Of a DNA stretch of 64,000 bases, positions 22,549 to 60,462 are shown piece by piece. The position numbers and the translations under genes are program-made. Source of the DNA: Curtobacterium sp. PhB115 (GTDB taxonomy: Bacteria; Actinomycetota; Actinomycetes; Actinomycetales; Microbacteriaceae). The stretch is taken from positions 310,001-374,000 of the forward strand of contig NZ_RJKR01000007.1 in NCBI RefSeq assembly GCF_003752025.1. Reading direction: 5' to 3'. The stretch's first letter is position 1, and the number at the start of each line of letters is the position of its first letter. A model generated the notes under the pieces. That model ran no database searches. It was not told the origin of the DNA and worked only from the letters and a program-made list of their open reading frames with translations.

Positions 22549-22620
22549 GGGCGATTGGCGCAGTTGGTAGCGCGCTTCGTTCACACCGAAGAGGTCATCA
22601 GTTCGAGTCTGGTATCGCCC
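22549..22620 (+). tRNA. tRNA-Val (anticodon CAC)
   Basis: 72 nt: acceptor GGGCGAT/ATCGCCC, anticodon loop TTCACAC, T-arm ATCAG-TTCGAGT-CTGGT. It lies directly upstream of the JetA-JetB-JetC operon. Confidence 0.97.
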
Positions 22621-22640
22621 ACACGCAACACCACCACAGC

Positions 22641-22732: not shown

Positions 22733-24262
22733 ATGACCGACGTCGACCTCGAGTTCGCCCGGGTCCGAGCGGTCCTCGACCGTCCGACGCTGCGGCTCAT
22801 GTCCCGCCCCACGAGCGCGACCGTCCTCGCCGTCTTCCGTACGGTGTTCGACCGCGACGTGCAGTACGTCCCCGCCGACCGGATGCACCTGCAGGTCGAG
22901 GAGCACGTCGCCCGCCTGCAGGCCTCGGGCGCGCGGGTGCCCGCGAGCGAACAGCACGAGCAGAGTGAGCAGGACGCTCGACCGCACGGCCGCGCACTCT
23001 GCCGTGAGTGGGTCGCCGCACAGTGGCTCGTCCGCTCCAACTCCCCCGACGGCGACGAGCAGTACTCGCTGACGAGCCACGCGCTCGAGGCCCTGAGCCT
23101 CGTCGACGCCCTCTCCGCCGACCGGGCACTCATCAGCGAGAGCCGGCTCGCGATGATCGTCGACGCCGTGCACCGCTGGGCCGCCCGCGCCGAGCCGGAC
23201 CCCGACGTGCAGATCCGCCGCATCGACGCCCAGATCGCCGAGCTGCAGGCCGAGCGCGAGCGACTCGAGCACGGCGACGACGTCGTGACGGTCGACGACG
23301 ACCGGATGCGCGACGGGTACACGAACATCTCGGACCTCATCCGGCAGCTGCCGAGCGACTTCAAGCGCGTGGAAGAGGCCGTCGCGACGATGCACCGGTC
23401 GATCGTCGAGGACTTCCGACAAGAGGTCCGCCCGATCGGCGAGATCCTCGACGACTACCTCGCCCGCACCGACAACCTCATGCAGGCCACTCCCGAGGGC
23501 CGTGCCTTCGAGGGGGCGTTCGAGCTCCTGCGCGACGACGCCCTGCTCCTGCGGCTCCGGGACGACGTGGCCACGATCCTGTCGCACCCGTTCGCCGAGT
23601 CGCTGGGTTCGGCGGAGCGCCGCGCCTTCCGCAACACGGTCACGATCCTCCGCCAGGGCATCGAGGACGTCCTCGCCCAACGCCGCCAGCTCACCGCGAC
23701 GCTCCGCGACCAGATCGTCGCGCACGACGTCGTCCGCGACCGCGAGCTCGATGCGGTGCTGCGCTCGATCAACCGCGGGCTCGCGACGCTGATGGGCCAG
23801 GGCGGCGCCCGTGAGCGCATCCCGCTCCCGCTGCTGCCGGCCCCGGCCGAGGTGGGCACCCTGCGCGAGCGCTTCTACGACCCGGACAACGAGTCGGTGC
23901 CACCGCCGATCGAGGAACCCGACGACGACGTCTTCGAGGACCTCGACGTCGAGATGCTCCGCAAGCACGGCGGTCCGCTCCTGACCGAGCTGCGCGCCGC
24001 GCTCCGGTTCGCCGAGGCCGACTCCAGCGTCGACGCGTTCCACGGGCTGCCGCCCGAGCAGCGCCGCCCGGTCGAACTGTTCGGCCTGGCGCACCTGCTC
24101 ACCGGGCACGCGGACTTCGAGTCCGCGGCGCACGTCGCCGAGCACCGCACGGTGCGTCCGGACGGCAGCCCGGTCACCTTCCACATGCCCACAGCTGCCC
24201 TCGCCGACGAGCGCACGCCGGTGAGCGATCCCCACGACGACGACGCACAGGAGGCGCGGTGA
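22733..24262 (+). CDS. jetA: Wadjet/MksBEF system protein JetA (DUF3375, kleisin-like)
   Basis: 509 aa of the DUF3375 family. JetA (MksF) is the kleisin-like subunit that bridges the SMC heads in plasmid-restricting Wadjet condensins. Visible family features: an N-terminal winged-helix region (FARVRAVLDRPTLRLMSRPT, then WVAAQWLVRSNSPDGDEQYS), a helical middle (VHRWAARAEPDPDVQIRRID), and SDLIRQLPSDFKRVEEAVAT leading into the long helical domain. ATG 22733 follows ACGAAGGGGC. It is the first gene of a three-gene operon and overlaps jetB by four bases (GTGA). The preceding hairpin isolates it from the tRNA transcript, so it needs its own promoter in the 62-base gap. Confidence 0.93.
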   Translation: MTDVDLEFARVRAVLDRPTLRLMSRPTSATVLAVFRTVFDRDVQYVPADRMHLQVEEHVARLQASGARVPASEQHEQSEQDARPHGRALCREWVAAQWLVRSNSPDGDEQYSLTSHALEALSLVDALSADRALISESRLAMIVDAVHRWAARAEPDPDVQIRRIDAQIAELQAERERLEHGDDVVTVDDDRMRDGYTNISDLIRQLPSDFKRVEEAVATMHRSIVEDFRQEVRPIGEILDDYLARTDNLMQATPEGRAFEGAFELLRDDALLLRLRDDVATILSHPFAESLGSAERRAFRNTVTILRQGIEDVLAQRRQLTATLRDQIVAHDVVRDRELDAVLRSINRGLATLMGQGGARERIPLPLLPAPAEVGTLRERFYDPDNESVPPPIEEPDDDVFEDLDVEMLRKHGGPLLTELRAALRFAEADSSVDAFHGLPPEQRRPVELFGLAHLLTGHADFESAAHVAEHRTVRPDGSPVTFHMPTAALADERTPVSDPHDDDAQEAR

Positions 24263-25050
24263 GCGACACGACGCCGGCAGAGGTCGACGAGATCGACCCG
24301 TTCGACGACCCCACCAGGGTCATCGAGGACGACGACCGTGACGAGTCCAGCTTCGCCCTCTTCGAGGGCGACGAGGGCCGGCTCGACGAGCACCAGCGCC
24401 GTGCACTCGTGGCGCTCCTGCGGTACTCCTACGTCAGCTCACGGTCCCACGCCGACGAGTGGCGCGCGGTCCTCGACGGCGAGTACCAGCTGCGGTCGCG
24501 ACTGAACGACCTGTTCCTCGAGCTGCACGTCGACCGGGACCGCGAGGTCGCCTGGAAGCGCCAGGCCCGTTCGGAGAGCCAGCGCCGCACGTTCCCGACC
24601 CTGCTCCGCGACGTGCCGTACACGCGCGAGGAGACGATCGTCCTCGTCTACCTGCGGATGCGGCTCCGTGCCGACGCCCGACCGGGTCCGGACCAGGTCG
24701 TCGTCGACCGCTCCGAGATCCTCGGGCACGTGGCGGGCTTCCGTCCGGCCACCGCGACCGACCGCACCCGCGACGAGGGCCGGGTGGCGAAGGCGATCGA
24801 GCGTCTCGTGACGGCACGCATCCTGATCCGGACGTCCGACCCGGACCGGTTCCGTGTCGCCAGCGCCGTCGAGGTGCTGCTGCCGCTCGACCGCCTGCTG
24901 GAACTGGACGCGTGGTTGCGGACGACCACCGCGAACGAGGACGCAACCGCCCCGGGTGGCGAGGCGACCGACGGGGACGACCCGCGCCTCCCGGCCGACG
25001 ACGCGACCGACCCGGGGACCGACACCGACGACGACGAGACGGAAGCATGA
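24259..25050 (+). CDS. jetB: Wadjet/MksBEF system protein JetB (DUF4194, KITE-like)
   Basis: 263 aa from a GTG overlapping jetA. It is a DUF4194 (MksE-like) subunit that binds the kleisin with two winged-helix domains. Visible: an acidic N-terminus, LDEHQRRALVALLRYSYVSS, TLLRDVPYTREETIVLVYLR, then EGRVAKAIERLVTARILIRT, a typical second winged helix. The last 50 residues are an acidic, Asp/Thr-rich tail. It is coupled to jetC by ATGA. Confidence 0.93.
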   Translation: MSDTTPAEVDEIDPFDDPTRVIEDDDRDESSFALFEGDEGRLDEHQRRALVALLRYSYVSSRSHADEWRAVLDGEYQLRSRLNDLFLELHVDRDREVAWKRQARSESQRRTFPTLLRDVPYTREETIVLVYLRMRLRADARPGPDQVVVDRSEILGHVAGFRPATATDRTRDEGRVAKAIERLVTARILIRTSDPDRFRVASAVEVLLPLDRLLELDAWLRTTTANEDATAPGGEATDGDDPRLPADDATDPGTDTDDDETEA

Positions 25051-28000
25051 CCGACACCTTCGCGATGCCCGCGCTGTTCGACACGGTGGCCCAGTGGCGC
25101 GCTGAGTCGATGCAGGTCGTGAACTGGGGCGGCTTCCACGGCCACCGGCAGGTCGAGCTGTCCGGCACGGCGACGCTCATCTCCGGCGCGTCCGGTACCG
25201 GCAAGTCCACCTTGATGGACGCGTACCTCGCGGTGATGATGCCATCAGACGTGCCGTTCAACGGCGCCTCGAACGACGCCACCACCGGCCGTGCCCGCAG
25301 TGCCGACCAGCGCAACCTGCTGACCTACCTGCGCGGCAAGGTCGACACGCGCCGTGACCCGGAGAGCGGCGCGCTGCGTGACGTGAACCTGCGCGGCGAC
25401 GACCAGACGACCTGGGGCGCGGTCGCGGTGACCTTCCGGAACGACGACGAGCGCCGGTTCACGGTGCTGCGCGCGTACATCGTGCCGAAGCGGGCGCGCG
25501 GCGTCGGTGACATCCAGATGACCATGGCGACCGTCGACGACACCTTCGACCTGCGCCGGCTCGAGGAGTTCGTGCCGACGCGGTTCCACCACCTCGAGCT
25601 GACCGGTCGCGTGCCGGGGCTCGTGATCCGCGACACCTACCAGGAGCTCGCGTACACGCTGCAGACCCGGCTCGGCATCGGCGACTCCGGTGGCGGCAAC
25701 CGGGCGATGCGCCTGCTCGCGCGCATCCAGGCCGGACAGCACCTGCCGACCGTCGACGCGCTGTACAAGTCGCTCGTGCTCGAGACCCCGGGCACCTACG
25801 AGGCCGCCGACCGCGCGCTCGCCCACTTCTCCGCCCTCGACGAGGCGTACGAGGCGATGGACACCGAGGAGCGCAAGGTCCGCATCCTCTCCCCCATCAC
25901 CGAGCTGCACGACGAGATCGCGCGGTCCCAGGCTGCGGCGAGTGCCCTCGACGGCATCGCCACCGGCGCCGAGGTCTCGCCGTTCGCGCACTGGACGGCC
26001 TCGCGGAAGCGGGAGCTTCTCGACGCCGAGGTCGCCCGCAACGGCCGGGAACGCACCGCGTCGCGCGCCGAGGTCGCCGCGGCCGAGGCCCGGCACGCCG
26101 CGGTCGAGATCGAGCTGCGCGACGCCGAGGCCCGGCTCCGCGACCAGGGCGGCAACGCGCTCGCCCAGCTCGAGGACCGCATCGACCGCCGCACCCGTGA
26201 GCGCGACGCGGTGGTCCGGACCCGGGCGACCTTCGACGAGCGGACCGCCGTGCTCGGGCTGTCGGCGTCGCTCTCGTCGGAAGCCGGCTTCACCAGCGCG
26301 CAGCGGGCGTCCCACGACTTCCTCGGGACGTACGCGGCTGCACGCTCGTCGTTGGACGACCGCCGCGACGCCCTGACCCGCGAGGAGTACCCGCTCCTCG
26401 ACCGCGAGCGGTCCCTGCGCCAGGAGCGGCAGTCGCTCGAGCACCGGCAGGGCGCGATGCCGCTGCCGATGCACGAGGCCCGGCTCGCCATGGCCCGCGC
26501 CGCCGGCATCGACCCGTCCGAACTGCCGTTCGTTGCGGAGCTGCTCGACGTCCTGCCCGGCGAGGAGCGCTGGCGCACGGCGATCGAGTCCGTCCTGGCG
26601 CCCGTCGCCCGCACGCTGCTGGTGGACCAGGACCGCCTCGGCGACTTCAGCGAGGCGATCGACGCACTGCGGCTGCCGGTCCGGGTGCAGTTCGAGGGCG
26701 TGCCGACCGGGCCGCACCTCGACCTCGACGGCGACCCCGCGATGGTGTCCGGCAAGCTCGCGATCAAGCAGTCCCCGTTCAGCACGTGGGTGCGCGAGCG
26801 GATCGAGTCCGACCGCACCGACGCCCGCTGCGTGGCCGACGCTTCGGAGCTCGGTGGCGGTGGCCGTCGGGTCACCGAGTCCGGGCAGCTCCGGGACGGC
26901 CGTCGTGGTGCGCACGGCGACCGGCGGCAGGCGAACGTCATCGGCTTCACCAACGAGGCCCGGATGGCCTCGGTGGAGCAGGAACTTACCTCGATCGCCG
27001 AGGACCTCACCACGCTCGAGGCCCGTCGCACCGATGTGGCGCAGGACATCGCGGCGCTCGACACCCTCCGCGCCGCGCACCAGCACGTCGTCGACGTCAC
27101 GTGGGACGCGATCGACGTCGAGGGGCTCGAGTCGTCGCTGGCCCGCCTCGACGAGGAGCGTCAGGCGCTGCTCGCAGCGGACGACGGGCTCCGCACCCTC
27201 CGCGCCTCGGTGGCACGCCTGCGGACATCGCTCGACGAGACCGCCGACCGCCGGTCCGCCGCACGGCTCTCCGTGCAGCGGCTCGAGGAGCGGCACGCGG
27301 TGCTCGTCGACGGGCAGGACGCCGCAGCCGAGATCCTGTCGCGTTTCGACGACACCCCCGAGTCGTTGCCCGACGACGAGCAGTCGCGACTGCTCGCCGA
27401 GACGTTCGCCGAGGTCGGTGCCCCGGACGGTGTGGACGGTTTCGACGACGCCACCCGACGGCTCCGACGCCGCCTGGAGGAGCGGCTGTCGCAGGCACTC
27501 GACGGTGCCGCAGCGGCCTCGACGTCGTTGACGCTCACGTTCCAGCGGTACCAGGACGCCTGGCCGGACCCGAACCTCGGCACCGGCGTCGCGTCGTACC
27601 CGGACTACCACGCGATCCTCGACCAGATCGTCGCCACCGGCCTGCACGCGCGACGGACCGAGTGGCGTCGGCGGCTGTCGCAGTGGAGCGGCGAGGACCT
27701 CGTGCCCCTCGCCGGAGCCTTCGACCGCGCCGTCGTCGAGATCGAGGAGCGCCTCGAACCGGTCAACGAGATCCTGCGCGAGCTGCCGTTCGGCGCGAAC
27801 CGGGACCGCCTGAAGATCCAGATCCGACGCGTCACCCGAGAGGACGTGAACGCGTTCCGCCGCGAACTCCGCGCGCTCTCCGCGTCGGTGGACACCGAGC
27901 TCACCGACGACGTGCTCGAGACCCGGTTCCGGCGGCTCCGGCGCTTCATGGACGTCATCCGCCCGGACTCCGAGGCGCCGCGCGGCCGCACCACCCAGCG

Positions 28001-28421
28001 CGACGCCGTGCTCGACGTCCGCCGCCACATGGAGATCACGGCCGTCCGGTACGACACCGACGGCAACGACCTCGGCGTGTACTCGTCGCTCGGTGACAAG
28101 TCCGGTGGTGAGACGCAGGAGCTCGTGGCGTTCATCGTCGGCGCGGCCCTGCGGTACCAGCTCGGCGACGAGACCCGGCCCCGGCCCCGGTTCGCGCCGG
28201 TGTTCCTCGACGAGGCGTTCATCAAGGCGGACTCGGAGTTCGCCGGCCGGGCGGTCACCGCGTGGCTCCGGCTCGGGTTCCAGCTCGTGGTGAGTGCGCC
28301 GCTCGACAAGGTCACGGCGCTCGAGCCGTCGATGGAGCGGCTCCTGTCGATGCGGAAGCACCCGGAGACGGGCCACTCGTCCATCACCGAGATCGCCCGG
28401 GTGGAGGCGGTCGCCGGCTGA
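25047..28421 (+). CDS. jetC: Wadjet/MksBEF system SMC-like ATPase JetC
   Basis: 1124 aa SMC-like protein. Walker A is GASGTGKS at residues 47-54. Long coiled-coil arms run from about 270 to 900, broken by a hinge region near 500. The C-terminal head has the ABC signature SLGDKSGGETQE (about 1014-1025) and Walker B PVFLDEAFIKADSEF (about 1051-1065). DEAFIKAD is characteristic of JetC/MksB. With JetA and JetB it should form a loop-extruding condensin. In Wadjet type I the nuclease JetD is encoded next; here no JetD follows, so DNA cleavage would need a JetD encoded elsewhere, or the complex acts as a chromosomal MksBEF-type condensin. Confidence 0.95.
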   Translation: MTDTFAMPALFDTVAQWRAESMQVVNWGGFHGHRQVELSGTATLISGASGTGKSTLMDAYLAVMMPSDVPFNGASNDATTGRARSADQRNLLTYLRGKVDTRRDPESGALRDVNLRGDDQTTWGAVAVTFRNDDERRFTVLRAYIVPKRARGVGDIQMTMATVDDTFDLRRLEEFVPTRFHHLELTGRVPGLVIRDTYQELAYTLQTRLGIGDSGGGNRAMRLLARIQAGQHLPTVDALYKSLVLETPGTYEAADRALAHFSALDEAYEAMDTEERKVRILSPITELHDEIARSQAAASALDGIATGAEVSPFAHWTASRKRELLDAEVARNGRERTASRAEVAAAEARHAAVEIELRDAEARLRDQGGNALAQLEDRIDRRTRERDAVVRTRATFDERTAVLGLSASLSSEAGFTSAQRASHDFLGTYAAARSSLDDRRDALTREEYPLLDRERSLRQERQSLEHRQGAMPLPMHEARLAMARAAGIDPSELPFVAELLDVLPGEERWRTAIESVLAPVARTLLVDQDRLGDFSEAIDALRLPVRVQFEGVPTGPHLDLDGDPAMVSGKLAIKQSPFSTWVRERIESDRTDARCVADASELGGGGRRVTESGQLRDGRRGAHGDRRQANVIGFTNEARMASVEQELTSIAEDLTTLEARRTDVAQDIAALDTLRAAHQHVVDVTWDAIDVEGLESSLARLDEERQALLAADDGLRTLRASVARLRTSLDETADRRSAARLSVQRLEERHAVLVDGQDAAAEILSRFDDTPESLPDDEQSRLLAETFAEVGAPDGVDGFDDATRRLRRRLEERLSQALDGAAAASTSLTLTFQRYQDAWPDPNLGTGVASYPDYHAILDQIVATGLHARRTEWRRRLSQWSGEDLVPLAGAFDRAVVEIEERLEPVNEILRELPFGANRDRLKIQIRRVTREDVNAFRRELRALSASVDTELTDDVLETRFRRLRRFMDVIRPDSEAPRGRTTQRDAVLDVRRHMEITAVRYDTDGNDLGVYSSLGDKSGGETQELVAFIVGAALRYQLGDETRPRPRFAPVFLDEAFIKADSEFAGRAVTAWLRLGFQLVVSAPLDKVTALEPSMERLLSMRKHPETGHSSITEIARVEAVAG

Positions 28422-29016
28422 CGCGGGCGGGGTGGCGGTCGCCGGGCCGGGTCTCGGGGCGGGGGCGGGTCGCGCGTGTCGGGTCTGGTCGCGCGTGTCG
28501 GGTCTGGTCGCGCGTGTCGGGTCTGGTCGCGCGTGTCGGCTGGTCAAGACACCCCGCTCAGTTTCGCCGAGCGGTCACTCCCCGTCGCCTGGCGGCGCCG
28601 CCGCCGACGGTCTGCGACCGCTCGGCGCGCTGGCGGCGGGGTGTCCTGACCACCCGGCCCGCGCCCTGGACGCGACCACTCGACGCGCTGTCGGCGGGGT
28701 GTCCTGACCACCCGGCCCGCGCCCTGGACGCGACCGACGACGGCCTGGAGGCGCGGTGCGGGCCCGCCACGGGCCTCCCGGGCGTCGTCCCGCCGGTCGC
28801 AACTCCCCGCTCAGGTTCGCGGAGCGGTCACGAACTGTCGGATGGCGGCGGCGCAGCCGACGGTCTGCGACCGCCCGGCGCCCGCCCGACGGGGTGTCCT
28901 GACCACCCGGCGGCGCGCGCCCGACGGGGTGTCCTGACCACCCGGCGGCCGGGCCGTCAGCGTGTCGGCAGGTGCCGCACAGACGTTCCATGACCACTCG
29001 CCGCTACGGTGAGGGC
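28422..29016. repeat. Gene-free region made of diverged direct and inverted repeats behind jetC
   Basis: No frame has convincing codon structure. A 19-bp tandem repeat lies at 28468-28539. Two diverged 111-base units (28547-28657 and 28800-28910) share CCCCGCTCAG, GAGCGGTCAC and GCCGACGGTCTGCGACCGC. Each ends in GGGGTGTCCTGACCACCCGG. That 20-mer occurs four times (28638, 28696, 28891, 28926), with a partial inverted copy at 28542-28555. The 58-base stretch around 28638 is almost perfectly duplicated at 28696. This is the position where jetD is expected. Confidence 0.8.
28468..28539. repeat. 19-bp tandem repeat
   Basis: Three exact copies of GGTCGCGCGTGTCGGGTCT (28468, 28487, 28506), followed by a partial fourth copy. 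The tandem array begins 47 bases after the jetC stop codon. Confidence 0.9.
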
Positions 29017-29319
29017 GTGTTCGGACGACGCCGCTCCCCCAAGCCCCGCCCCGACGACGCGCAGGGCCTCGGCATCGGCGCGCTCGTGCAGGTCATCGAC
29101 TCCGCGCAGGGCGGCGAGCGGTGGGCCGACGAGCCGATCGGCGTGATCGTGGCTCCTGGCGGCAACCAGCTCGTGGGCTACCCCGGGGTCGGCGAACCGC
29201 TGTCGTGGACGGTCGCTTTCGACGAGCCCGTGTACACGAAGGACGGCCGCGGCCCCTTCGAGCGCGCGACCGTCCTGAGTCGTCAGCTGGTGCCGGTCAC
29301 GACCGACAGCGGCGAGTAG
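29017..29319 (+). CDS. Conserved hypothetical protein, about 100 aa
   Basis: I do not recognise a named family. The sequence starts with a basic patch (FGRRRSPKPRPDD) and continues as a beta-rich small domain: GIGALVQVIDSAQGGERWAD, IGVIVAPGGNQLVGYPG, LSWTVAFDEPVYTKDGRG. It has no membrane segment. GTG at 29017 is chosen because GGTGAGGG lies four bases upstream; ATG 28990 in the same frame is the alternative and would add nine residues. Codon usage fits the window. Confidence 0.7.
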   Translation: MFGRRRSPKPRPDDAQGLGIGALVQVIDSAQGGERWADEPIGVIVAPGGNQLVGYPGVGEPLSWTVAFDEPVYTKDGRGPFERATVLSRQLVPVTTDSGE

Positions 29320-29333
29320 TCCGGGTCAGGGAC

Positions 29334-29441
29334 TCAGTACTCTTCGGAGCCGCTCTTCATCATGGCGGCGACCGCCATGCAGGAGCCCACGCCACCGAGG
29401 ACGCCGACGCCGATGATGATGCCTGCGATGAGTTCGAGCAT
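29334..29441 (-). CDS. 35-aa single-helix membrane microprotein
   Basis: A very short gene with clear signs of translation: GAGGAG nine bases upstream of the ATG, third positions rich in C and G, and a sensible protein. The peptide starts MLELIAGIIIGVGVLGGVG, continues SCMAVAAMMKSG and ends in SEEY. It has one hydrophobic helix with glycine spacing and a short charged tail, so it should sit in the membrane. The function is unknown. It may modulate the POT transporter encoded 45 bases downstream on the same strand. Confidence 0.65.
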   Translation of the reverse strand: MLELIAGIIIGVGVLGGVGSCMAVAAMMKSGSEEY

Positions 29442-33534: not shown

Positions 33535-33801
33535 CTACGCCCGGTCGGCCCCGCCGAGATCCCCGAGCGCCGCGCGCAACCGCGCCTCGGCGTCGTCGCC
33601 GGACTCGCCGGCAGCAGCCGCAGCAGCGGCTTCGGCGTTCGCCTCGGCGACCGCCCGCACGACCTCTTCACGCTGGATCTTCACGCCACGCGGCGCGTCG
33701 ATCCCGATGCGCACGCCGTCCCCTCGGGCGTCGAGGACCGTGATGACGATGTCGTCACCGACGAGGATCCGCTCGCCGACCTTCCGCGTGAGTACCAGCA
33801 C
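33535..33801 (-). CDS. csrA: Carbon storage regulator CsrA
   Basis: 88 aa. The first 48 residues are a clean CsrA: MLVLTRKVGERILVGDDIVI, then RIGIDAPRGVKIQREEVV. CsrA binds GGA-containing mRNA leaders and blocks or stabilises translation; in Bacillus it controls flagellin with FliW. The C-terminal 35 residues are an Ala/Glu-rich helix longer than in typical CsrA (about 61-75 aa). It is the last gene of the flagellar operon, four bases after the flhF-like stop, so it is made with the export machinery. FliW, its usual antagonist, is not in this window. Confidence 0.93.
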   Translation of the reverse strand: MLVLTRKVGERILVGDDIVITVLDARGDGVRIGIDAPRGVKIQREEVVRAVAEANAEAAAAAAAGESGDDAEARLRAALGDLGGADRA

Positions 33802-33805
33802 CCGT

Positions 33806-34735
33806 TCAGCCTAGCGACAGGACGGGCACCCCCAGCAGGTCGATCGACTCCGGCGTGGCGGTCTCCCCCGCGCCGATCGCGACGACGCCGGCCACGGGCA
33901 ACCGGTCGGCGACCGTGGACACCATGGCCGCCGAGTCCTCCGGCTTCCGTCCGACGTCGACCACGACCCACACCTGGTCGGGCTCGAGCCCTTCGCTGGT
34001 CCGTCGGTCGTCCCACGCGGCGAAGGCGACGACGGCGTGGCCGTCCCGCACCCCGTCGGCGCGGGCGAGGATCCCGGAGCGGCGGTCAGCGGCGTCGGTG
34101 GGCCGCAACGCGTACCGGGTCGCGAACAGGCGTGCTGCCGCGTCGACGTCGTTCGGCCGTCCGACCAACAGCACCAGGTCCCCGTCGGCGGACCGCACGG
34201 CCGGGGCCGTGGGCCGGACCGTGCGCCCGACCGGGGCGACGTCGGGGACGCTGGTCGGGCCTCCCGGCTGGGCGTCGGTGACAGCCTGGGTGTCGGTGAC
34301 GGCCCGGAGGCGCGGGTCGACCCGGACAGGCGCGTCCTGGTCCGGCAGCGCGGCCGTCGGGCGCGGCGCGCTCCCCGTGATCCCGTCCGCCGCGAAGCCG
34401 TCGAGCACCGACGCGAACGCGTCGGCGCGCGTCGTCGCGGTGCCGTCGGTGCCCGCGATGCGGGCCTCCGCCGCTTCCGCGTCGGCGAGGAGCGCCGCGA
34501 TCCCGATCCGCTGCACCGGCGAGTCCGCGATGACGACGCGCGCGGTCGGGGGCTCCCCCGGCTCCGGGACCTCGACGGTGGCCTCGACGTGCGCCTTGCG
34601 GAACAGTCCGCCGATGCCCGGCGTGGTGACGCGTTCGGCGGCGACGATGCGGGCACCGGCGCCGAACTCGGTCCGGACGGCGTCCCGGACCTCGTCGAGC
34701 GTGGCGCCGCTACGCTGCAATCGGGTCGGCGGCAC
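33806..34735 (-). CDS. FlhF-like protein lacking the GTPase P-loop
   Basis: 309 aa. The N-terminus resembles the FlhF B-domain (SGATLDEVRDAVRTEFGAGA, then ITTPGIGGLFRKAHVEATVE-like text with RVTTPGIGG). A Pro/Asp-rich linker follows, and a C-terminal alpha/beta domain has DGDLVLLVGRPNDVDAAARL. The glycine-rich GxxxxGKT that true FlhF GTPases carry at this place is replaced by GRPNDVDAA, and DQVWVVVDVGRKPEDSAAMV stands where the Asp-containing switch would be. It is probably a non-hydrolysing relative that still helps place or regulate the flagellum. GTG 34735, with GGGAG upstream, overlaps the flhA end by 26 bases. Confidence 0.7.
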   Translation of the reverse strand: MPPTRLQRSGATLDEVRDAVRTEFGAGARIVAAERVTTPGIGGLFRKAHVEATVEVPEPGEPPTARVVIADSPVQRIGIAALLADAEAAEARIAGTDGTATTRADAFASVLDGFAADGITGSAPRPTAALPDQDAPVRVDPRLRAVTDTQAVTDAQPGGPTSVPDVAPVGRTVRPTAPAVRSADGDLVLLVGRPNDVDAAARLFATRYALRPTDAADRRSGILARADGVRDGHAVVAFAAWDDRRTSEGLEPDQVWVVVDVGRKPEDSAAMVSTVADRLPVAGVVAIGAGETATPESIDLLGVPVLSLG

Positions 34736-36764
34736 GGACCACTCCCACGGTCTCGATGGTGGAGCCGGCGGCGGTGGCCTCCTGGTACGACAGCACCGGG
34801 AGCCCGTTCGACTGCGCGGAGACCATGCGGTGCACGGCCGGTCGCAGCTGCGGGGCGCAGACGAGGACGGCGGAGAGCCCCTGGTCCTCGACGCTCCGGA
34901 CGGCGTCGCGGACGGAGCCGAGCACCTGCTCGATGCGGTGCGCGTCGAGCACGATCTGCGAGCCCTGCTCGGACGGTCGGAGGCCCTCGAGCATGGACTG
35001 CTCGAGCAGCGGGTCGATCATGATGACGCGGAGGGTGCCGGCGTCGAGGTAGCGCGCGGCCAGGGCGGGTCCGAGGGCGGCGCGGGCGGCTTCGACGAGT
35101 CCCTCGGGGTCGGTGGACACCTTCGCGCGGAGGGTCAGCGCCTCGCAGATCCGGCCGAGGTCGTTGATCGGCACCCGCTCGACGAGCAGGCCCTGCAGCA
35201 CCCGCTGGAGTTCGGCCATCGAGAGCATGCCGGGCACGAGCTCCTCGACGGCGGCCGGGTTGACCTGCTTGACGCCCTCGGTCAGGACCTTGACGTCCTC
35301 GCGGGTGAGCAGGCGCGCGGCGTTGTCGCCGATGATCGCCTGCAGGTGGGTGACGAGCACGGACACGCGGTCGATCACGGTGGCCCCGGTCATCTCGGCG
35401 GCGTGCCGGAGCTCGGCGGGCACCCACTTGCCGGCCAGGCCGAAGACGGGTTCCACGGTGGTGGTGCCCGGCAGCCCGTCGAGGTGGTCGCCGAGCGCCA
35501 GGACACTGCGCGCCGGTGCGGTGCCGCGGCCGGCCTCGACCCCGGCGATCCGGATGGCGTACGTGGAGGGCGGCAGGTCGATGCTGTCGCGGGTGCGGAC
35601 CGGCGGCACCACGACGCCCATGTCGATCGCGATCTTGCGGCGGAGTGCCCGGACCCGGCCGAGCAGGTCGTCGGAGGCGCCGGAGACCATGTCGACGAGG
35701 TCGGGGGCGAGCAGGATCTCGAGGGCGTGCACGCGCATCTGCTCGATGAGGTCCTCGGGGCTGTCCCCGGTGGGTGCTGCGGACGCGATCGCCTGCTGTT
35801 CCGCCGCGGCGGCCTCGGCCTGGGCGGCGTTGCGGCCGATGCGCCAGCCGGTGAAGAGCAGGGTCGCGCCGACGAGCAGGAACGGCAGGATCGGCATGCC
35901 GGGGATGAAGCCCATCGCGATGGCCGCGACGCCCGCGATCATCAGGGCGTTCCGGGACTGCGACAGCTGGGTGGCAGCCGAGGCACCCATCTCGGACTCG
36001 GCACCGGAGCGGGTGACGATCATGCCGGTGGAGACCGCCATCAGCAGCGCGGGGATCTGGGTGACGAGCCCGTCGCCGATGGTCAGGATGCCGTACTTCG
36101 ACAGGGCGTCGGTGGCGGAGAGCCCGTTCTGCAGCATGCCGATCGCGATGCCACCGACCAGGTTGATGATGATGATGAGGATGCCGGCGATCGCGTCGCC
36201 CTTGACGAACTTCGACGCACCGTCCATCGCGCCGTAGAAGTCGGCCTCGGCGGACACCGCGGCACGGCGGTCCTTCGCCTGTTCGTCGGTGATGAGGCCG
36301 GCGTTGAGGTCCGCGTCGATCGCCATCTGCTTGCCCGGCATCGCGTCGAGGGTGAACCGCGCACCGACCTCGGCGACGCGCTCGGCACCCTTCGTCACGA
36401 CGACGAACTGGATCACGATGAGGATCAGGAAGATCACGGCGCCGATGATGATCGAGCCGGACACCGCGACGTGGCCGAACGCCTGGATGACGTCGCCGGC
36501 GAAGCCCTCGCCGAGGACGAGCCGGGTGGACGCAACGTTGAGCCCGAGGCGGAACAGCGTCGCGACGAGCAGCAGCGACGGGAACACCGAGAAGTCGAGC
36601 GGCTTCTTCACGAACAGCGTCGTGAGCAGGATCACCAGCGCCAGCAGGATGTTGATGATGATCAGGAAGTCGAGCAGGAACGACGGCACCGGCAGGATCA
36701 GCAGCAGGATGATGCCGACGATGAACACCGGGACGACGAGCTTCGGCAGGTCCTTGCGGTTCAT
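34710..36764 (-). CDS. flhA: Flagellar type III export protein FlhA
   Basis: 684 aa. The N-terminal half has about eight membrane helices with the FHIPEP-family signature (PSLLLVATLFRLGLNVASTR) and the conserved loop AERVAEVGARFTLDAMPGKQ. The cytoplasmic C-terminal domain (from about residue 340) carries AIRIAGVEAGRGTAPARSV and the chaperone-binding region. FlhA forms the nonameric ring that engages substrates for export. It starts in an ATGA overlap with flhB. Confidence 0.97.
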   Translation of the reverse strand: MNRKDLPKLVVPVFIVGIILLLILPVPSFLLDFLIIINILLALVILLTTLFVKKPLDFSVFPSLLLVATLFRLGLNVASTRLVLGEGFAGDVIQAFGHVAVSGSIIIGAVIFLILIVIQFVVVTKGAERVAEVGARFTLDAMPGKQMAIDADLNAGLITDEQAKDRRAAVSAEADFYGAMDGASKFVKGDAIAGILIIIINLVGGIAIGMLQNGLSATDALSKYGILTIGDGLVTQIPALLMAVSTGMIVTRSGAESEMGASAATQLSQSRNALMIAGVAAIAMGFIPGMPILPFLLVGATLLFTGWRIGRNAAQAEAAAAEQQAIASAAPTGDSPEDLIEQMRVHALEILLAPDLVDMVSGASDDLLGRVRALRRKIAIDMGVVVPPVRTRDSIDLPPSTYAIRIAGVEAGRGTAPARSVLALGDHLDGLPGTTTVEPVFGLAGKWVPAELRHAAEMTGATVIDRVSVLVTHLQAIIGDNAARLLTREDVKVLTEGVKQVNPAAVEELVPGMLSMAELQRVLQGLLVERVPINDLGRICEALTLRAKVSTDPEGLVEAARAALGPALAARYLDAGTLRVIMIDPLLEQSMLEGLRPSEQGSQIVLDAHRIEQVLGSVRDAVRSVEDQGLSAVLVCAPQLRPAVHRMVSAQSNGLPVLSYQEATAAGSTIETVGVVRAADPIAA

Positions 36765-37939
36765 GCGGTGACTCCTTCGGAGCGGGTGGTTCGGAGCTTG
36801 CGGGGCCGGAGGTCACCGGTCAGGGTGGCGGGGTCGATGACGCCGGCGACCTCGTCGGGCGTCGTCGGGCGCGGCGCCGAGTGCGTGCCGGCAGCGGTGC
36901 CGCGGGCCTTCAGCGCCATCACGAACGAGAGCACGCGGGCGACCGGCGTGTACAGGTCGACGGGGATCTCGTGCCCGAGCTCGCACGCGGCGTGCAGGGC
37001 ACGGGTGAGCGGGACGTCGCGGACGATCGGCACGCGGTCCTCTTCCGCACGGGAACGGATCACGTCGGCGACCGGTCCGGCGCCCTTCGCGACCACCCGT
37101 GGCGCGGACTTCCCCGGCTCGTACTTGAGCGCGACGGCGTAGTGCGTCGGGTTCGTCATCACGACGTCCGCGGTGCCCACCGACGCGATCATCCGGTTGC
37201 GGCTCATGGCGAGCTGCCGTGAGCGTCGCTGACCCTTGACGAGCGGGTCGCCGTCGCTCTTCTTGTGCTCGTCCTTGACCTCGCGCTTGGTCATCATGGT
37301 GCGCTTGCGGTTGCGCCGGATGACGACGAACACGTCGATCGCGGCGAGCAGAAGCCCGGCCGCGATCGCGGCGCGGAGCAGGGTGCCTGCGCCGTCCGCC
37401 GCGGCCTCGAGCACCGCGGACAACGGCAACGAGCCGCTCGTCATGAGCACGGGCATCAGCCCCTGCACCGCGAACCAGAGCACGAGCCCGACGACCGAGG
37501 TCTTCAACAGCGCCTTCACGCCGTTCCACAGCGCCTGCACGCCGAACACGCGCTTCAGGCCGGCGATGGGGTCGAAGTGCGAGGCCTCGGGTGCGAGCTT
37601 CCGGATGTGCACGCCGCCCTGCGCCACCGCGGCGGCCGTGACCGCGACGAGGACGACGAGGAGCATCGGTCCGAGGGTGGCACCGATCGACCCCATCGAC
37701 TCGGCGAACACCTGGTTCATCGTGCCGATCGTCGGGTTCGTGATGACGGAGCGGACGGCACTGAGCTGGTGGGTGCCGGCGGCCGCGGCGTTGCCGATGA
37801 CGGCGGGCACCATGAGCGCGACGACGGCGATGCCGATCCACGCGCCGAGGTCCTGGGAGCGGCCGAGCTGGCCCTTCCGGTAGACCTCCTGCATGCGCTT
37901 CTGGGTGGCCTTCTCGGACTTCTCACCACTGTCGGACAC
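36761..37939 (-). CDS. flhB: Flagellar type III export protein FlhB
   Basis: 392 aa. It starts MSDSGEKSEKATQKRMQEVY, typical of FlhB (GEKTE-AT-KR). Four membrane helices lie between residues 30 and 205, and the cytoplasmic domain has the self-cleavage site NPTH at 263-266 (MTNPTHYAVALKY). Cleavage after Asn switches export from hook to filament proteins. The C-terminal tail of about 45 residues is longer than usual. Confidence 0.97.
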   Translation of the reverse strand: MSDSGEKSEKATQKRMQEVYRKGQLGRSQDLGAWIGIAVVALMVPAVIGNAAAAGTHQLSAVRSVITNPTIGTMNQVFAESMGSIGATLGPMLLVVLVAVTAAAVAQGGVHIRKLAPEASHFDPIAGLKRVFGVQALWNGVKALLKTSVVGLVLWFAVQGLMPVLMTSGSLPLSAVLEAAADGAGTLLRAAIAAGLLLAAIDVFVVIRRNRKRTMMTKREVKDEHKKSDGDPLVKGQRRSRQLAMSRNRMIASVGTADVVMTNPTHYAVALKYEPGKSAPRVVAKGAGPVADVIRSRAEEDRVPIVRDVPLTRALHAACELGHEIPVDLYTPVARVLSFVMALKARGTAAGTHSAPRPTTPDEVAGVIDPATLTGDLRPRKLRTTRSEGVTA

Positions 37940-37945
37940 CGGGCG

Positions 37946-38704
37946 TCACCCCCGTCCCGTGATCGCCTGGACGGCGTCGCCGGTCAACGACGACACCACC
38001 GAGGGCAGGGCCATGAAGAGCGCACCGGCGAAGAGGACGGTCAGCCCGATCTTGATCGGGAAGCCCATCTGGAACGCGTTCAGCGCCGGGGCGACGCGGG
38101 TGAGCAGACCGAGGCCGACGTCCGCCAGGAACAGCACGACGACGAGCGGTCCGGCGATCTGCAGCGTGGCGAGGAACATCTGCGACATCGCGGTGACGAG
38201 CAGCGACGCGAGGCCGTCGAGCGCGAACGAGCCGGTCAGCGGGACGGCGTCGAAGGAGCGCACGAGGCCGCCGACGATGAGCTGGTAGCCGCCGGAGGTG
38301 AACAGGAGCGCGAGGGCCGCCATCTGGAACAGCCGGGTGAACTGGGCGCCGTTGACCTGCGACTGCGGGTCGAACGCCTGCGCGAGGGTGAAGCCGCCGA
38401 ACAGGTCGATGAGCGCACCGGCGGACTGCACCGCTGCGAACACCAGGAAGACGAGGAACCCGAGCGCCAGCCCGACGACGAGCTGGGTGAGCAGGGCGAG
38501 CAGGAACGGGCCGGTCTCGAGCGACTCGTAGCCGACGGCGACGCGCGGGGCGACCCCGATCGCGAGACCCAGCCCGAGGATCACCTTCACGGTGCCGGGG
38601 AACGCGCGGTACGAGAACGGCGGCGCGATCACGAAGAACGCCACCAGCCGGACGCCGGCGAGCATCGTCGCCTCGAGCCGGTCGGCGTCGACGGCGAGCT
38701 CCAT
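37946..38704 (-). CDS. fliR: Flagellar export protein FliR
   Basis: 252 aa with about six hydrophobic helices; family features PPFSYRAFPGTVKVILGLGL and the central AGALIDLFGGFTLAQAFDP. FliP, FliQ and FliR form the export gate. The stop of fliQ and the ATG of this gene share a base (TGATG), and the gene ends seven bases before flhB. Confidence 0.96.
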   Translation of the reverse strand: MELAVDADRLEATMLAGVRLVAFFVIAPPFSYRAFPGTVKVILGLGLAIGVAPRVAVGYESLETGPFLLALLTQLVVGLALGFLVFLVFAAVQSAGALIDLFGGFTLAQAFDPQSQVNGAQFTRLFQMAALALLFTSGGYQLIVGGLVRSFDAVPLTGSFALDGLASLLVTAMSQMFLATLQIAGPLVVVLFLADVGLGLLTRVAPALNAFQMGFPIKIGLTVLFAGALFMALPSVVSSLTGDAVQAITGRG

Positions 38705-38979
38705 CAGGCGCTCCCGAGGAGCTTCGGGATCATCTCGAAGGCGACGTGCGTGAACGCCACCATCTCCGAGATCATCCAGTTGCCGCAGATCACCAGGGCG
38801 ATCGCCACCGCGACGGCCTTCGGTACGAAGGAGAGCGTGACCTCCTGGATCTGCGTCACCGACTGGAACAGCGAGATCGCGAACCCGACCACGAGCGACG
38901 TGATGAGCACGGGAGCGGCGAGCTTCGCGGACACCAGGAGCGCCTGCAGCACGAGGTCGATGACTGCCTGCTGGTTCAT
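38704..38979 (-). CDS. fliQ: Flagellar export protein FliQ
   Basis: 91 aa with two membrane helices, the standard FliQ size: LVLQALLVSAKLAAPVLITS, VGFAISLFQSVTQIQEVTLS, then VPKAVAVAIALVICGNWMIS. It lies between fliP and fliR, as in nearly all flagellar operons. Confidence 0.97.
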   Translation of the reverse strand: MNQQAVIDLVLQALLVSAKLAAPVLITSLVVGFAISLFQSVTQIQEVTLSFVPKAVAVAIALVICGNWMISEMVAFTHVAFEMIPKLLGSA

Positions 38980-38988
38980 GCGCGCCCC

Positions 38989-39807
38989 CTAGACAACGTG
39001 GTAGCTCTCGATGAGCGACTTGATGATGAGGCCCCAGCCGTCGACCAGCACGAAGAGCAGGATCTTGAACGGCAGCGAGATCATGACCGGCGGGAGCATC
39101 ATCATGCCCATCGACATGAGCGCCGCGGAGACGACGAGGTCGATCACCAGGAACGGGATGAAGATGACGAACCCGATGATGAACGCGCTGCGGAGCTCCG
39201 AGATGATGAACGCCGGGATCACCGTCGTCATCGGCACGTCCGCCATCGACTTCGGGTTGTCGAGTCCGGCGGCGCGGGTGATCAGGGCGACGTCCTCGTC
39301 CCGCGTCTGGTGGAGCATGAAGGTCCGCAGCGGCTTCGTGCCGATCTCGACGGCCTGGTCAAAGTCGAGGTGCCCGGCCAGGTAGGGCTGCAGCGCGTCC
39401 TCGTTGATGTGCCCGAGCACCGGCGCCATCACGAACAGCGACAGGAACAGCGCGAGCCCCGCGATGACCTGGTTCGGCGGGATCGACTGCAGGGCGAGCG
39501 CGTTCCGGGTCATCGCGAGGACGACGAAGATCTTCGTGAACGACGTCATCATGAGCATGAGCGCCGGTGCGACGCTGAGCAGGGTGATGCCGATGAGCGT
39601 CTCGACGGCGGACGACGGGGTGCCGTCGGGACCGTTCACGCTGACGCTGAAGTCACCGGTCGCGGGTGCGGTCGGCGTGACGGGTGCCGTCGGTTCGACG
39701 ACCCCGGCGGCGTGCGCGCCGGTCGCGGTGAGCATGAGGAACCCGGCGACCACCGCCAGCCCGAGCAGGACCAGCGCGACCAGTCGTCCGGTCCGTGCGG
39801 CGGTCAC
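38989..39807 (-). CDS. fliP: Flagellar export protein FliP
   Basis: 272 aa from a GTG that overlaps the fliO stop (GTGA). It has a cleavable signal peptide (about residues 1-35, ending ATGAHAAG). FliP signatures are MMTSFTKIFVVLAMTRNALA, PPNQVIAGLALFLSLFVMAP and LIIKSLIESYHVV at the end. The open frame continues upstream through fliO but is not the real gene. FliP pentamers form the core of the gate. Confidence 0.96.
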   Translation of the reverse strand: MTAARTGRLVALVLLGLAVVAGFLMLTATGAHAAGVVEPTAPVTPTAPATGDFSVSVNGPDGTPSSAVETLIGITLLSVAPALMLMMTSFTKIFVVLAMTRNALALQSIPPNQVIAGLALFLSLFVMAPVLGHINEDALQPYLAGHLDFDQAVEIGTKPLRTFMLHQTRDEDVALITRAAGLDNPKSMADVPMTTVIPAFIISELRSAFIIGFVIFIPFLVIDLVVSAALMSMGMMMLPPVMISLPFKILLFVLVDGWGLIIKSLIESYHVV

Positions 39808-40346
39808 CCGGCCCGCCGGTTCCGGAGCGCCGCTGCTGCCTGCCGCCAGGTCTCGGCGGACAGGATCGAGCCCTGCAGCTGCTGCGCGGACGGCGCGACG
39901 GTGCGCTGGGGACGGCGGTTGCGCGGACGCATCGGCAGCGGGTCCGCTGCGGTCGTCTCGTTCGCGTCGGCCGGGAGGCCCGTGGTGGCGTCCGACTGCA
40001 GCGCCAGTTCCTGACGGAACACGTCGGCCGACGGGGCGGGACGAACGGGCAGCTGGACGGGTCCGGTCACGATGGTCAGCTCGGGTGCCGGTGCCTGCCC
40101 GCTGGTGAGCAGGCTGACGCCCTGCTCGGAGACGCCGAGCACGAGGCGCTCCCCCTCGACGTCGACGACGACGATGCTCGCCTTGCCGCCGAGGCCCTGT
40201 CGACCGACGACCTCGACGGTCGCCGCACGACGACCGGAGGCCTTCCCGGCGAAGCGCTTCTTGCTGGCGCGGTGCAGCACCCACATGAGGGCGAGCACGA
40301 CGCCGAGCGACAGCGCGACGCGGAGGGTGACGAGGAGGGTGTCCAC
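39804..40346 (-). CDS. fliO: Flagellar biosynthetic protein FliO
   Basis: 180 aa. One N-terminal membrane helix (LLVTLRVALSLGVVLALMWV) is followed by a basic stretch (HRASKKRFAGK) and a small beta domain with VEVVGRQGLGGKASIVVVDV and LVLGVSEQGVSLL, typical of FliO. The Pro/Arg-rich C-terminal tail is variable. FliO helps assemble the FliP ring. It is placed between fliN and fliP as expected. Confidence 0.92.
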   Translation of the reverse strand: MDTLLVTLRVALSLGVVLALMWVLHRASKKRFAGKASGRRAATVEVVGRQGLGGKASIVVVDVEGERLVLGVSEQGVSLLTSGQAPAPELTIVTGPVQLPVRPAPSADVFRQELALQSDATTGLPADANETTAADPLPMRPRNRRPQRTVAPSAQQLQGSILSAETWRQAAAALRNRRAG

Positions 40347-40356
40347 GGGGCCGGGC

Positions 40357-41064
40357 TCAGACGGATTCGGCGACGTCGAGGATCCGCGTGATGCGGACGG
40401 CGTAGTCCTGGTCCACGACGACGACCTCGCCGTGCGCGATCAGGCGACCGTTCAGCAGGACGTCGGCGGGAGCGCCGGCGCTGCGGTCGAGCTCGACGAC
40501 GGCGCCGGGCTCCATGCCGAGCACGTCGCGGACCGACATCCGGGTCCGGCCGATCTCGACGGTGAGGGTCATCTCGACGTTGTTGATGCGACCGAGGTTG
40601 CCGGCGGGGACGGCCGCCGGCGTGGCCGGAGCGGACACCGTGCCGTTCTCGCGCACCCGGATGCCGAACCACCCCCCGGGAGCGCCACCGGCGGTGAGCT
40701 CGAACACGACGGTGTCGGGGTCGGCCAGCAGCGACGCGGCCGAGCCACGGTGCGCCTCACCGAGGACGCCGACACCGAGCACGGTCGCGGCGGCCTCGAG
40801 CGACGGCCGCAGCACGTCGGTGACGGCGACGATGCCGTGGTCCGTGCCGCCCGCGGCGGTCACCGCGTCGAGGTCGGTGAGGACGAGCGCCAGATCGGCC
40901 GACAGGCCGCCGACGAAGGACGCGACCACCGCGTCGGCCGCCGCTTCGAGCACGACGGGGGTCGCGCCTCCAGGCAGGAGCACCGCACCCAGGGGGGCGG
41001 CCGTCGGGAGCTGCGCCGCGAGCGACTCGGCCGCTGTCGTGTGCAGGGTGGTGGTGACGTTCAT
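40357..41064 (-). CDS. fliN: Flagellar motor switch protein FliN (long form)
   Basis: 235 aa. The C-terminal SpoA domain (about 160-232) is clear: VEMTLTVEIGRTRMSVRDVL, MEPGAVVELDRSAGAPADVL, LLNGRLIAHGEVVVVDQDYA. The N-terminal 150 residues form a CheC/FliY-like region (VLTDLDAVTAAGGTDHG) and make this longer than enterobacterial FliN (137 aa). FliY-type phosphatase motifs are not clearly kept. Together with FliM it forms the cytoplasmic C-ring. It overlaps the fliM end (ATGA). Confidence 0.93.
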   Translation of the reverse strand: MNVTTTLHTTAAESLAAQLPTAAPLGAVLLPGGATPVVLEAAADAVVASFVGGLSADLALVLTDLDAVTAAGGTDHGIVAVTDVLRPSLEAAATVLGVGVLGEAHRGSAASLLADPDTVVFELTAGGAPGGWFGIRVRENGTVSAPATPAAVPAGNLGRINNVEMTLTVEIGRTRMSVRDVLGMEPGAVVELDRSAGAPADVLLNGRLIAHGEVVVVDQDYAVRITRILDVAESV

Positions 41065-41981: not shown

Positions 41982-42060
41982 CCGTCAGTGGTGTACCCCG
42001 TAGTGGGGCGGTGGGGGTTTCGCGTCGTCTCGCGTCGTCTCGCGTTCTCGCCTCGGGTGG

Positions 42061-42990: not shown

Positions 42991-42992
42991 CG

Positions 42993-59934: not shown

Positions 59935-59993
59935 GGTGCGTCCTTTCGGAGAGGCAGGAAGAAGAAGAAGGAGAAGGGGAAGGAGGACGAGCG

Positions 59994-60437: not shown

Positions 60438-60462
60438 GGTTGCGTTCCTGTTCGTGAGCCGG

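What the first reader, a model, noticed from the sequence alone, without database searches (positions are those of the whole stretch)
22733..28421. Wadjet-type JetA-JetB-JetC operon without JetD
The sequence shows DUF3375, DUF4194 and an SMC-like ATPase in coupled order, with intact Walker A, signature and Walker B motifs in JetC. In type I Wadjet the nuclease subunit JetD (DUF3322/DUF2220) is the fourth gene, and cleavage of plasmid DNA depends on it. Here jetC is followed by about 600 bases of repeats and then an unrelated small gene. Either JetD was lost, lies elsewhere, or this is a JetABC (MksBEF-type) condensin that does not cut DNA. The locus also sits next to a tRNA gene, a common integration point.
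Basis: partly seen in the sequence, partly recalled or inferred. Interest (0 to 1): 0.7.

Follow-up and report, generated by a model that had tools for sequence, protein, structure and literature searches.

The report
Nuclease-less Wadjet motor in Curtobacterium
A three-gene DNA-looping machine, known elsewhere as the sensing half of an anti-plasmid defence, is kept across almost a whole bacterial genus without its DNA-cutting partner, so it probably does a chromosome-handling job instead of cutting plasmids.

Summary
The window (Curtobacterium, Microbacteriaceae) carries intact, overlapping jetA-jetB-jetC of the Wadjet type I families. No jetD follows, none is found in the 99.98%-complete genome, and no remnant is found in the 568-bp gap. 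This is a genus-wide state: JetC in 63 of 66 Curtobacterium genomes, JetD in 1 of 66, and that one follows a second, distant JetC.

There is no sign of an island at a tRNA: the same four tRNAs flank the locus in all 11 strains tested and in two strains that lack the operon. The genes are under purifying selection (dN/dS about 0.09-0.17), and ScpB of SMC-ScpAB is also present. JetD-less JetABC is common: 38 of 67 JetC-bearing Microbacteriaceae genomes and 36 of 65 JetA-bearing Actinomycetia genomes lack JetD. The JetD state changed at least 7 times on the JetC tree; one pair of cores 92% identical in DNA differs in JetD.

Best reading: a Wadjet-derived motor acting as a second, non-cutting condensin, like P. 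aeruginosa MksBEF, which a review already proposes arose by JetD loss. Function is inferred, not shown. At least one published annotation lists JetABC alone as 'Wadjet'. New variant of a known kind; moderate interest.

The parts
22549..22622 (+). tRNA-Val (cac), 110 bp upstream of jetA; a conserved landmark, not an attachment site by the tests made
22733..24262 (+). jetA, kleisin-type subunit (DUF3375), 509 aa
   Evidence: profile match to solved JetA chains, 132 bits
24259..25050 (+). jetB, KITE-type subunit (DUF4194), 263 aa; LFEGDEGRL motif at the end of a poorly conserved N-terminal tail
   Evidence: AlphaFold model (mean pLDDT 77.7) best matches solved JetB, E 1.3e-8
25047..28421 (+). jetC, SMC-like ATPase, 1124 aa, intact ATPase motifs
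   Evidence: solved JetC 184 bits, MukB 22 bits
28422..28989 (.). non-coding gap with 58-nt, 120-nt and 19-nt-spaced repeats; no trace of jetD found
28990..29319 (+). 109-aa gene of unknown function, next after jetC in most Curtobacterium loci; its cluster does not appear beside JetABC of other genera in the gene orders shown; probably not part of the system
   Evidence: no Pfam hit; dN/dS 0.31

Best explanation
The operon encodes a complete Wadjet type I motor core: JetC SMC-like ATPase, JetA kleisin, JetB KITE. It has lost its nuclease JetD and has been kept as a chromosomal, vertically inherited second condensin beside SMC-ScpAB. Shown here: the intact core, the absence of JetD, near genus-wide presence at one locus, purifying selection, presence of ScpB, and repeated change of the JetD state on the JetC tree. 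Inferred: that JetABC still loads on DNA and extrudes loops with ATP, as reported for Wadjet (PMC12647877, abstract in the listing), and that without JetD the outcome is DNA folding, segregation or compaction and not cleavage.
For: Intact families and motifs. No JetD in own genome or gap. JetC in 63 of 66 Curtobacterium genomes (60 of 62 good ones); JetD in 1 of 66, next to a second JetC only 29% identical. ScpB in 64 of 66, 62 of 62 good ones. In most named loci the same order: tRNAs, jetABC, 109-aa gene, POT, acyl-CoA oxidase, then csrA-flhF or two small genes. dN/dS medians jetA 0.087, jetB 0.167, jetC 0.105, against 0.061 to 0.305 for five neighbouring genes, 13 pairs, not all independent. 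JetD state changes at least 7-8 times on an 89-row JetC tree. JetD-less operons also sit at one locus in other lineages, e.g. after ileS-like genes in Isoptericola and kin. Literature: P. [quoted passage not shown] C. glutamicum MksBEFG, with the nuclease, does not fold the chromosome (PMC7083940, abstract and passages).
Against: No functional datum exists for this complex. The core keeps every one of 111 columns conserved among JetD-bearing rows and keeps the JetB F.GD.G.L motif, as would be expected if a JetD-like partner still existed. Two of 62 good-quality Curtobacterium genomes lack JetC, so it is not essential. Parsimony on an unrooted label cannot separate losses from gains of JetD, and the JetD tree is unresolved deep down.
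Confidence: 0.66

Rival explanations
1. JetABC still defends against plasmids, using an unrelated effector nuclease encoded elsewhere in place of JetD.
For: All columns conserved in JetD-bearing rows and the JetB F.GD.G.L motif are kept in the Curtobacterium lineage, whereas the g35/g55 JetD-less lineage departs at 18 of 111 columns and lacks the motif in 7 of 7 rows. One JetD-less locus (L199) has an sbcD-like gene directly after jetC.
Against: No gene other than the 109-aa ORF recurs next to jetC in the Curtobacterium gene orders, and none was seen to recur across JetD-less genera. The sbcD-like case is one of 28 JetD-less loci. Columns conserved across JetD-bearing systems may serve the motor alone. 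No search for co-occurring nucleases elsewhere in the genomes was made.
Confidence: 0.13
2. JetABC acts on plasmids without cutting them, by looping or compacting small circles and so silencing or destabilising them.
For: The motor core is intact. The review says that JetABC is the sensor and confers shape and size sensing (PMC10586767, passages).
Against: In C. glutamicum, deletion of the nuclease gene mksG has the same plasmid effect as deletion of mksB or mksF, so the nuclease is needed there (PMC10123090, passages).
Confidence: 0.12
3. The operon is a decaying defence remnant.
For: JetD is gone; 3 of 66 genomes lack JetC, one of them a 73%-complete assembly; jetA and jetC are broken into pieces in one contig (L045) and JetC matches in three pieces in G305.
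Against: dN/dS 0.09-0.17 over 13 pairs, within the range of neighbouring genes; 60 of 62 good genomes keep JetC; ATPase motifs intact. G305 is a 65%-complete assembly, and in L045 other genes are broken too. In G318 the two pieces lie in one open frame of 1195 aa.
Confidence: 0.04
4. JetD is supplied in trans by a gene that was missed or sits on an unassembled replicon.
For: Six genomes of the class sample carry both a JetD-bearing and a JetD-less operon (G359, G406, G534, G536, G549, G628), and so do some Microbacteriaceae, G163 among them, so sharing is possible in principle.
Against: 65 of 66 Curtobacterium genomes have no JetD_C hit, while the control genome C. glutamicum rings; the JetD profile A1 finds none in 6 of the 7 Curtobacterium genomes of the family sample, G163 being the seventh.
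Confidence: 0.03

Closest known systems
Wadjet type I, JetABCD / MksBEFG / EptABCD (C. glutamicum, M. smegmatis, P. aeruginosa PA14, E. coli GF4-3)
   Same: Same subunit families, gene order and overlaps; JetC 184 bits, JetA profile 132 bits, JetB profile 50 bits to solved PA14 chains.
   Different: No JetD gene found in the operon or genome; near genus-wide at one locus.
P. aeruginosa MksBEF (JetD-less, chromosome-acting)
   Same: Three-subunit core without nuclease; a second condensin beside SMC-ScpAB; the review proposes an origin by JetD loss (PMC10586767, passages).
   Different: MksE Pfam model under its cut-off here; no direct sequence comparison with that MksBEF was made; function untested here.
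'Wadjet: JetA, JetB, JetC' in Paenarthrobacter lasiusi S21
   Same: A JetABC call without JetD in an actinobacterium, listed beside a full type I operon on another contig (PMC11719660, table passage).
   Different: Counted as a defence system there; its sequence was not compared here.
MukBEF
   Same: Kleisin-KITE-SMC architecture; the JetB model also matches MukE (E 1.2e-5).
   Different: Weaker match than to Jet chains.

Membership tests
Wadjet type I (JetABCD) | JetA of the DUF3375 family | tested here: met
   324.8 bits; PADLOC JetA1 608 bits
Wadjet type I (JetABCD) | JetB of the DUF4194 family | tested here: met
   113.7 bits; JetB1 369 bits; fold match
Wadjet type I (JetABCD) | JetC SMC-like ATPase with Walker A, signature and Walker B | tested here: met
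Wadjet type I (JetABCD) | Coupled jetA-jetB-jetC order | tested here: met
   4-bp overlaps
Wadjet type I (JetABCD) | JetD nuclease (DUF3322 + DUF2220/JetD_C) | tested here: not met
Wadjet type I (JetABCD) | Restricts small circular plasmids | not testable with these tools
   needs an experiment
MksBEF-like condensin without nuclease | Kleisin, KITE and SMC subunits and no MksG/JetD | tested here: met
MksBEF-like condensin without nuclease | MksE-family KITE (PF21980) | tested here: not met
   21 bits, cut-off 27
MksBEF-like condensin without nuclease | Acts on the chromosome | not testable with these tools
   needs Hi-C or imaging
Additional condensin beside SMC-ScpAB | ScpB encoded in the same genome | tested here: met
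   own hit G000:C1:124851-125330; 64 of 66 in the genus. ScpA and SMC were not searched.
tRNA-borne integrated element | Attachment repeat, integrase, or presence tied to the tRNA | tested here: not met
   longest exact tRNA match downstream 12 nt; same tRNAs in 11 of 11 loci tested and in the 2 strains without jetABC; genes called between the tRNA and csrA are jetABC, the 109-aa gene, POT and acyl-CoA oxidase

The most novel reading that the evidence does not exclude
JetD loss has repeatedly turned an anti-plasmid defence into a housekeeping chromosome condensin in Actinomycetia, so that JetABC in about half of the JetA-bearing genomes of this class is not a defence system at all. In Curtobacterium the converted complex sits in the replication-terminus region (0.46-0.50 of the chromosome in 12 of 12 dnaA-first genomes; about 91 kb from the one dif-like site on the own contig) and may serve terminus segregation, as MukBEF and its partners do in enterobacteria (recalled).
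Probability: 0.3. Interest if true: 0.78.

Novelty: new variant of a known kind. Interest (0 to 1): 0.5.

Why it matters
Whether Wadjet and MukBEF/MksBEF are one machine pointed at different DNA is an open question. A review proposes that chromosome-acting MksBEF arose from JetABCD by JetD loss, with P. aeruginosa as the example. The Actinomycetia supply many such changes of state, one of them recent (92% DNA identity between a JetD-bearing and a JetD-less core), and a genus almost fixed in the JetD-less state. This makes the proposal testable by comparison. It also warns that a 'Wadjet' call on JetABC alone should not be read as anti-plasmid defence.

Tried and rejected
JetD remnant in the gap: rejected; the profile finds none, and in three Curtobacterium-type loci (L014, L020, L032) jetC is followed by the next gene after only 9-19 bp.

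The 109-aa gene as a new fourth subunit: not supported. In the gene orders shown it stands after jetC only in Curtobacterium-type loci, at 9 to about 700 bp (4.2 kb in L024), and the small genes after jetC in other genera are unrelated to it. Genomes were not searched for it.

JetB N-terminal motif as the published JetD contact: the review puts an IFDR motif at the JetB N-terminus. In a JetD-bearing Cupriavidus JetB, IFD is at residues 3-5; the F.GD.G.L motif here is at another place, next to the first helix of the model. Its meaning stays open. A regular-expression count gave 86 of 92 for other JetD-less rows, 0 of 7 for g35/g55 and 19 of 27 for JetD-bearing rows. Some misses are artefacts of the segment taken: L146, L152, L153, L157 and L167 show the motif in the aligned view, and L163 has a one-letter variant there.

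Gap repeats as a loading site: unlikely. The core motif occurs in the gap of 5 of 40 Curtobacterium-type loci (11 copies) and nowhere else in those loci.

Terminus linkage as a general rule: rejected. No dif-like site within 100 kb either side of jetC in G063, nor in the 180 kb fetched around jetC in G141. Of five dnaA-first JetD-less genomes outside Curtobacterium, one (G224) is at 0.503, three are at 0.63-0.72 and one at 0.22; a dnaA-first JetD-bearing genome (G150) is at 0.36.

JetD regained or lost in g52: undecided; the JetD tree shares supported tip groups with the JetC tree but has no deep resolution.

JetC on plasmids: 16 of 72,556 plasmid records match, best 41% identity; not pursued.
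Full report
WHAT IS THERE. The window lies on contig C3 (310001-374000) of a 3.97-Mb, 99.98%-complete genome. Its nearest relatives are Curtobacterium: the JetC-bearing contigs that carry this name are 88-98% identical (the 98% over 286 residues only), apart from two deep-branching ones at 72-74%. jetA (22733-24262), jetB (24259-25050) and jetC (25047-28421) are complete and overlap by 4 bp. Pfam and PADLOC place them in DUF3375/JetA1, DUF4194/JetB1 and JetC1. Solved structures agree: JetC hits PA14 JetC with 184 bits and MukB with 22; profiles of JetA and JetB hit only Jet chains at E up to 0.01; the JetB model (23 sequences, mean pLDDT 77.7) best matches JetB 8as8_C and 8dk1_E, then MukE. 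The JetA model has a low pTM (0.40) and was not used for a fold search.

JETD IS ABSENT. PF09983 gives no hit in the own genome and PF11795 only a 15.3-bit sub-threshold match. A profile of 11 JetD proteins (alignment A1) gives no match at E up to 1 in the own genome, 49 candidates scored. Over 299 family genomes it gives 33, which serves as its control; 30 of these are full JetD-type hits, and G129 (a remnant), G280 and G286 are weak. A six-frame search of the window and loci L002-L169 with a like profile finds JetD strongly in the operons that have it and nowhere else, except a 71-codon remnant in L164. In the genus, 1 of 66 genomes has JetD_C; there it directly follows another JetC (29% identical) of a second operon, while the genus-type operon on another contig has none.

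IT IS A GENUS CHARACTER. JetC is found in 63 of 66 Curtobacterium genomes, 60 of 62 of good quality. In most named loci the order is tRNAs, jetABC, the 109-aa gene, POT transporter, acyl-CoA oxidase, then csrA-flhF or two small genes. Exceptions: three contigs end just after jetC (L005, L007, L012), L062 is truncated, L045 has many broken genes, L002 has one extra ORF and L024 a 4.2-kb insert before the 109-aa gene, in L031 no 109-aa gene is called, POT is not called in L024, L025, L036 and L043, and beyond acyl-CoA oxidase L032 differs. Upstream of the tRNAs the genes vary between strains. Two good-quality strains without JetC, G295 and G336, have the same four tRNAs on one side and acyl-CoA oxidase on the other, with an unrelated 269-aa gene where jetABC, the 109-aa gene and POT would be. 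The longest exact match of any of the four tRNAs in the 14 kb downstream is 12 nt. So there is no sign of a tRNA-integrated element, and GC content is level (0.69-0.76 in 2-kb steps).

IT IS UNDER SELECTION. For 13 Curtobacterium pairs (not all independent), median dN/dS is 0.087 (jetA), 0.167 (jetB), 0.105 (jetC), against 0.090 acyl-CoA oxidase, 0.128 POT, 0.061 flhA, 0.278 flhF, 0.305 the 109-aa gene. ScpB of SMC-ScpAB is present in 64 of 66 genomes, 62 of 62 good ones; the two misses are an 88%- and a 73%-complete assembly. ScpA and SMC were not searched. JetABC is therefore most likely an extra condensin-like complex, not a replacement.

IT IS COMMON. In 299 family genomes, 67 have JetC and 32 a PF09983 match. 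Setting aside G129 (71-codon remnant, about 820 kb from its jetABC) and G212 (23.5 bits), 29 of the 67 have a JetD in the genome and 38 do not; one genome, G147, has JetD without a JetC hit. In 394 class genomes, 68 match JetA, 65 over the cut-off; 39 match PF09983, of which I counted the 31 with 100 bits or more. Of the 65, 29 have such a JetD and 36 do not, the 36 including four with partial or broken JetA (G417, G561, G621, G682); two genomes (G445, G711) have JetD without JetA. I fetched 36 stretches of that sample: 28 JetD-less operons, 5 with JetD, and 3 others, one without a resolved jetC (L211) and two with a JetD hit and no jetABC (L223, L231). Six genomes of this sample hold both kinds (G359, G406, G534, G536, G549, G628). 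In some JetD-less lineages the locus is the same from species to species, as after an ileS-like gene in Isoptericola, Sanguibacter and kin.

HISTORY. A JetC tree of 89 rows (28 with JetD; Curtobacterium thinned to 10 rows; L048 and L055 also left out) needs 8 changes of the JetD state, 7 forced by well-supported branches, against a mean of 24 for shuffled labels; it is a quick tree, and the tool warns of several long branches that meet. Curtobacterium, genus g50 and L038/L039 form one JetD-less clade of 17. The nearest JetD-bearing kin are g52 (49-51% JetC identity; L137, L184), Nocardioides cremeus (L047) and g3 (L144). In genus g48, L153 (with JetD) and L157 (without) are 91.7% identical in DNA across jetABC, and the similarity stops at the end of jetC; their neighbours differ, so the operon has moved there. 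The JetD and JetC trees share supported tip groups (25 rows), so JetD seems to travel with its JetABC. The counts cannot tell gain from loss; loss is preferred because, where jetC and JetD occur together in the stretches seen, JetD lies directly after jetC.

TWO KINDS OF JETD-LESS CORE. Of 111 columns conserved (88% or more) in JetD-bearing rows (14 JetA, 14 JetB, 83 JetC), the Curtobacterium lineage departs at none, most other JetD-less lineages at up to 5-6, and the g35/g55 JetD-less lineage at 18. The latter also lacks the JetB F.GD.G.L motif in 7 of 7 rows. So the Curtobacterium core looks like a Wadjet core with its nuclease removed, and g35/g55 like one that has drifted further. This is compatible with the best reading and also with an unknown partner (rival 1).

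MECHANISM. From the literature (passages read), JetABC supplies ATP-driven shape and size sensing and JetD cuts (PMC10586767); C. glutamicum MksBEFG does not fold the chromosome (PMC7083940), and deletion of mksB, mksF or mksG affects a plasmid alike (PMC10123090); the JetD-less P. [quoted passage not shown] By analogy with MksBEF the Curtobacterium complex most likely extrudes loops on the chromosome and does not cut. In 12 of 12 Curtobacterium chromosomes whose record begins with dnaA (of 20 examined) jetC lies at 0.461-0.501 of the length, opposite oriC; the only dif-like site on the own contig is at C3:242045, about 91 kb from jetA; in G017 (g18, JetD-less) a perfect dif-like site lies 4.7 kb from jetC. 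The dif pattern is recalled. Genus g50 (G224) is at 0.503, but g63, g78 and the other four dnaA-first JetD-less genomes do not fit, so this is a lead and not part of the main claim.

LITERATURE CHECK. A search for Wadjet with phrases for a missing JetD returned one paper, the review above; Curtobacterium with Wadjet returned one paper, which does not report this operon in the passages seen. A Paenarthrobacter genome paper lists a 'Wadjet' made of JetA, JetB and JetC beside a full type I operon (PMC11719660, table passage). Work on a mycobacterial MksB condensin is recalled; the search listed no paper with it in the title.

VERDICT. Observation confirmed; interpretation partly supported and sharpened. 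It is a JetD-less type I Jet core nearly fixed in a genus: it works most likely like MksBEF and belongs by family to the Wadjet type I core, but it fails that system's defining nuclease and so should not be called a Wadjet defence system.

Noticed in passing
window 29334-29441, minus strand: A 35-aa hydrophobic small protein (MLELIAGIIIG...KSGSEEY) between the 109-aa gene and POT, too short for the gene caller; a 103-bp stretch of it is 80% identical in DNA even in G295 and G336, where jetABC and POT are missing.
   Followed up: partly
window 28462-28959: 58-nt, 120-nt and 19-nt-spaced repeats after jetC; the core GTGTCCTGACCA motif occurs only in this gap, in 5 of 40 Curtobacterium-type loci.
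   Followed up: yes
G000:C3:242045 (L274:2045) and L134:13437-13456: dif-like sites (recalled consensus); jetABC lies in the terminus region in Curtobacterium and 4.7 kb from dif in G017.
   Followed up: partly
L164:5262-5474 (G129): A 71-codon C-terminal JetD fragment about 820 kb from the JetD-less jetABC of the same genome.
   Followed up: partly
L199, after jetC: An sbcD-like gene (by its first residues, recalled; 381 aa) starts 10 bp after a JetD-less jetC and overlaps a 1001-aa gene, perhaps sbcC.
   Followed up: no
L163 (G163, Curtobacterium): The only Curtobacterium genome of 66 with JetD carries a second, distant JetABCD operon besides the genus-type JetABC.
   Followed up: yes
L160, L161, L175, L177, L185-L187 (genera g35, g55): A separate JetD-less JetABC lineage with a drifted core and no JetB F.GD.G.L motif.
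   Followed up: partly
L223 and L231: JetD-type hits (154 and 279 bits) with no jetABC in the stretch fetched.
   Followed up: no
L241 10089-12684 (G336): Transposase-like genes (by eye) beyond the tRNA cluster in a strain without jetABC.
   Followed up: no
window 33535-44116 and 58759-63996: csrA followed by flagellar genes (flhF, flhA, flhB and others, named by eye) on the minus strand.
   Followed up: no
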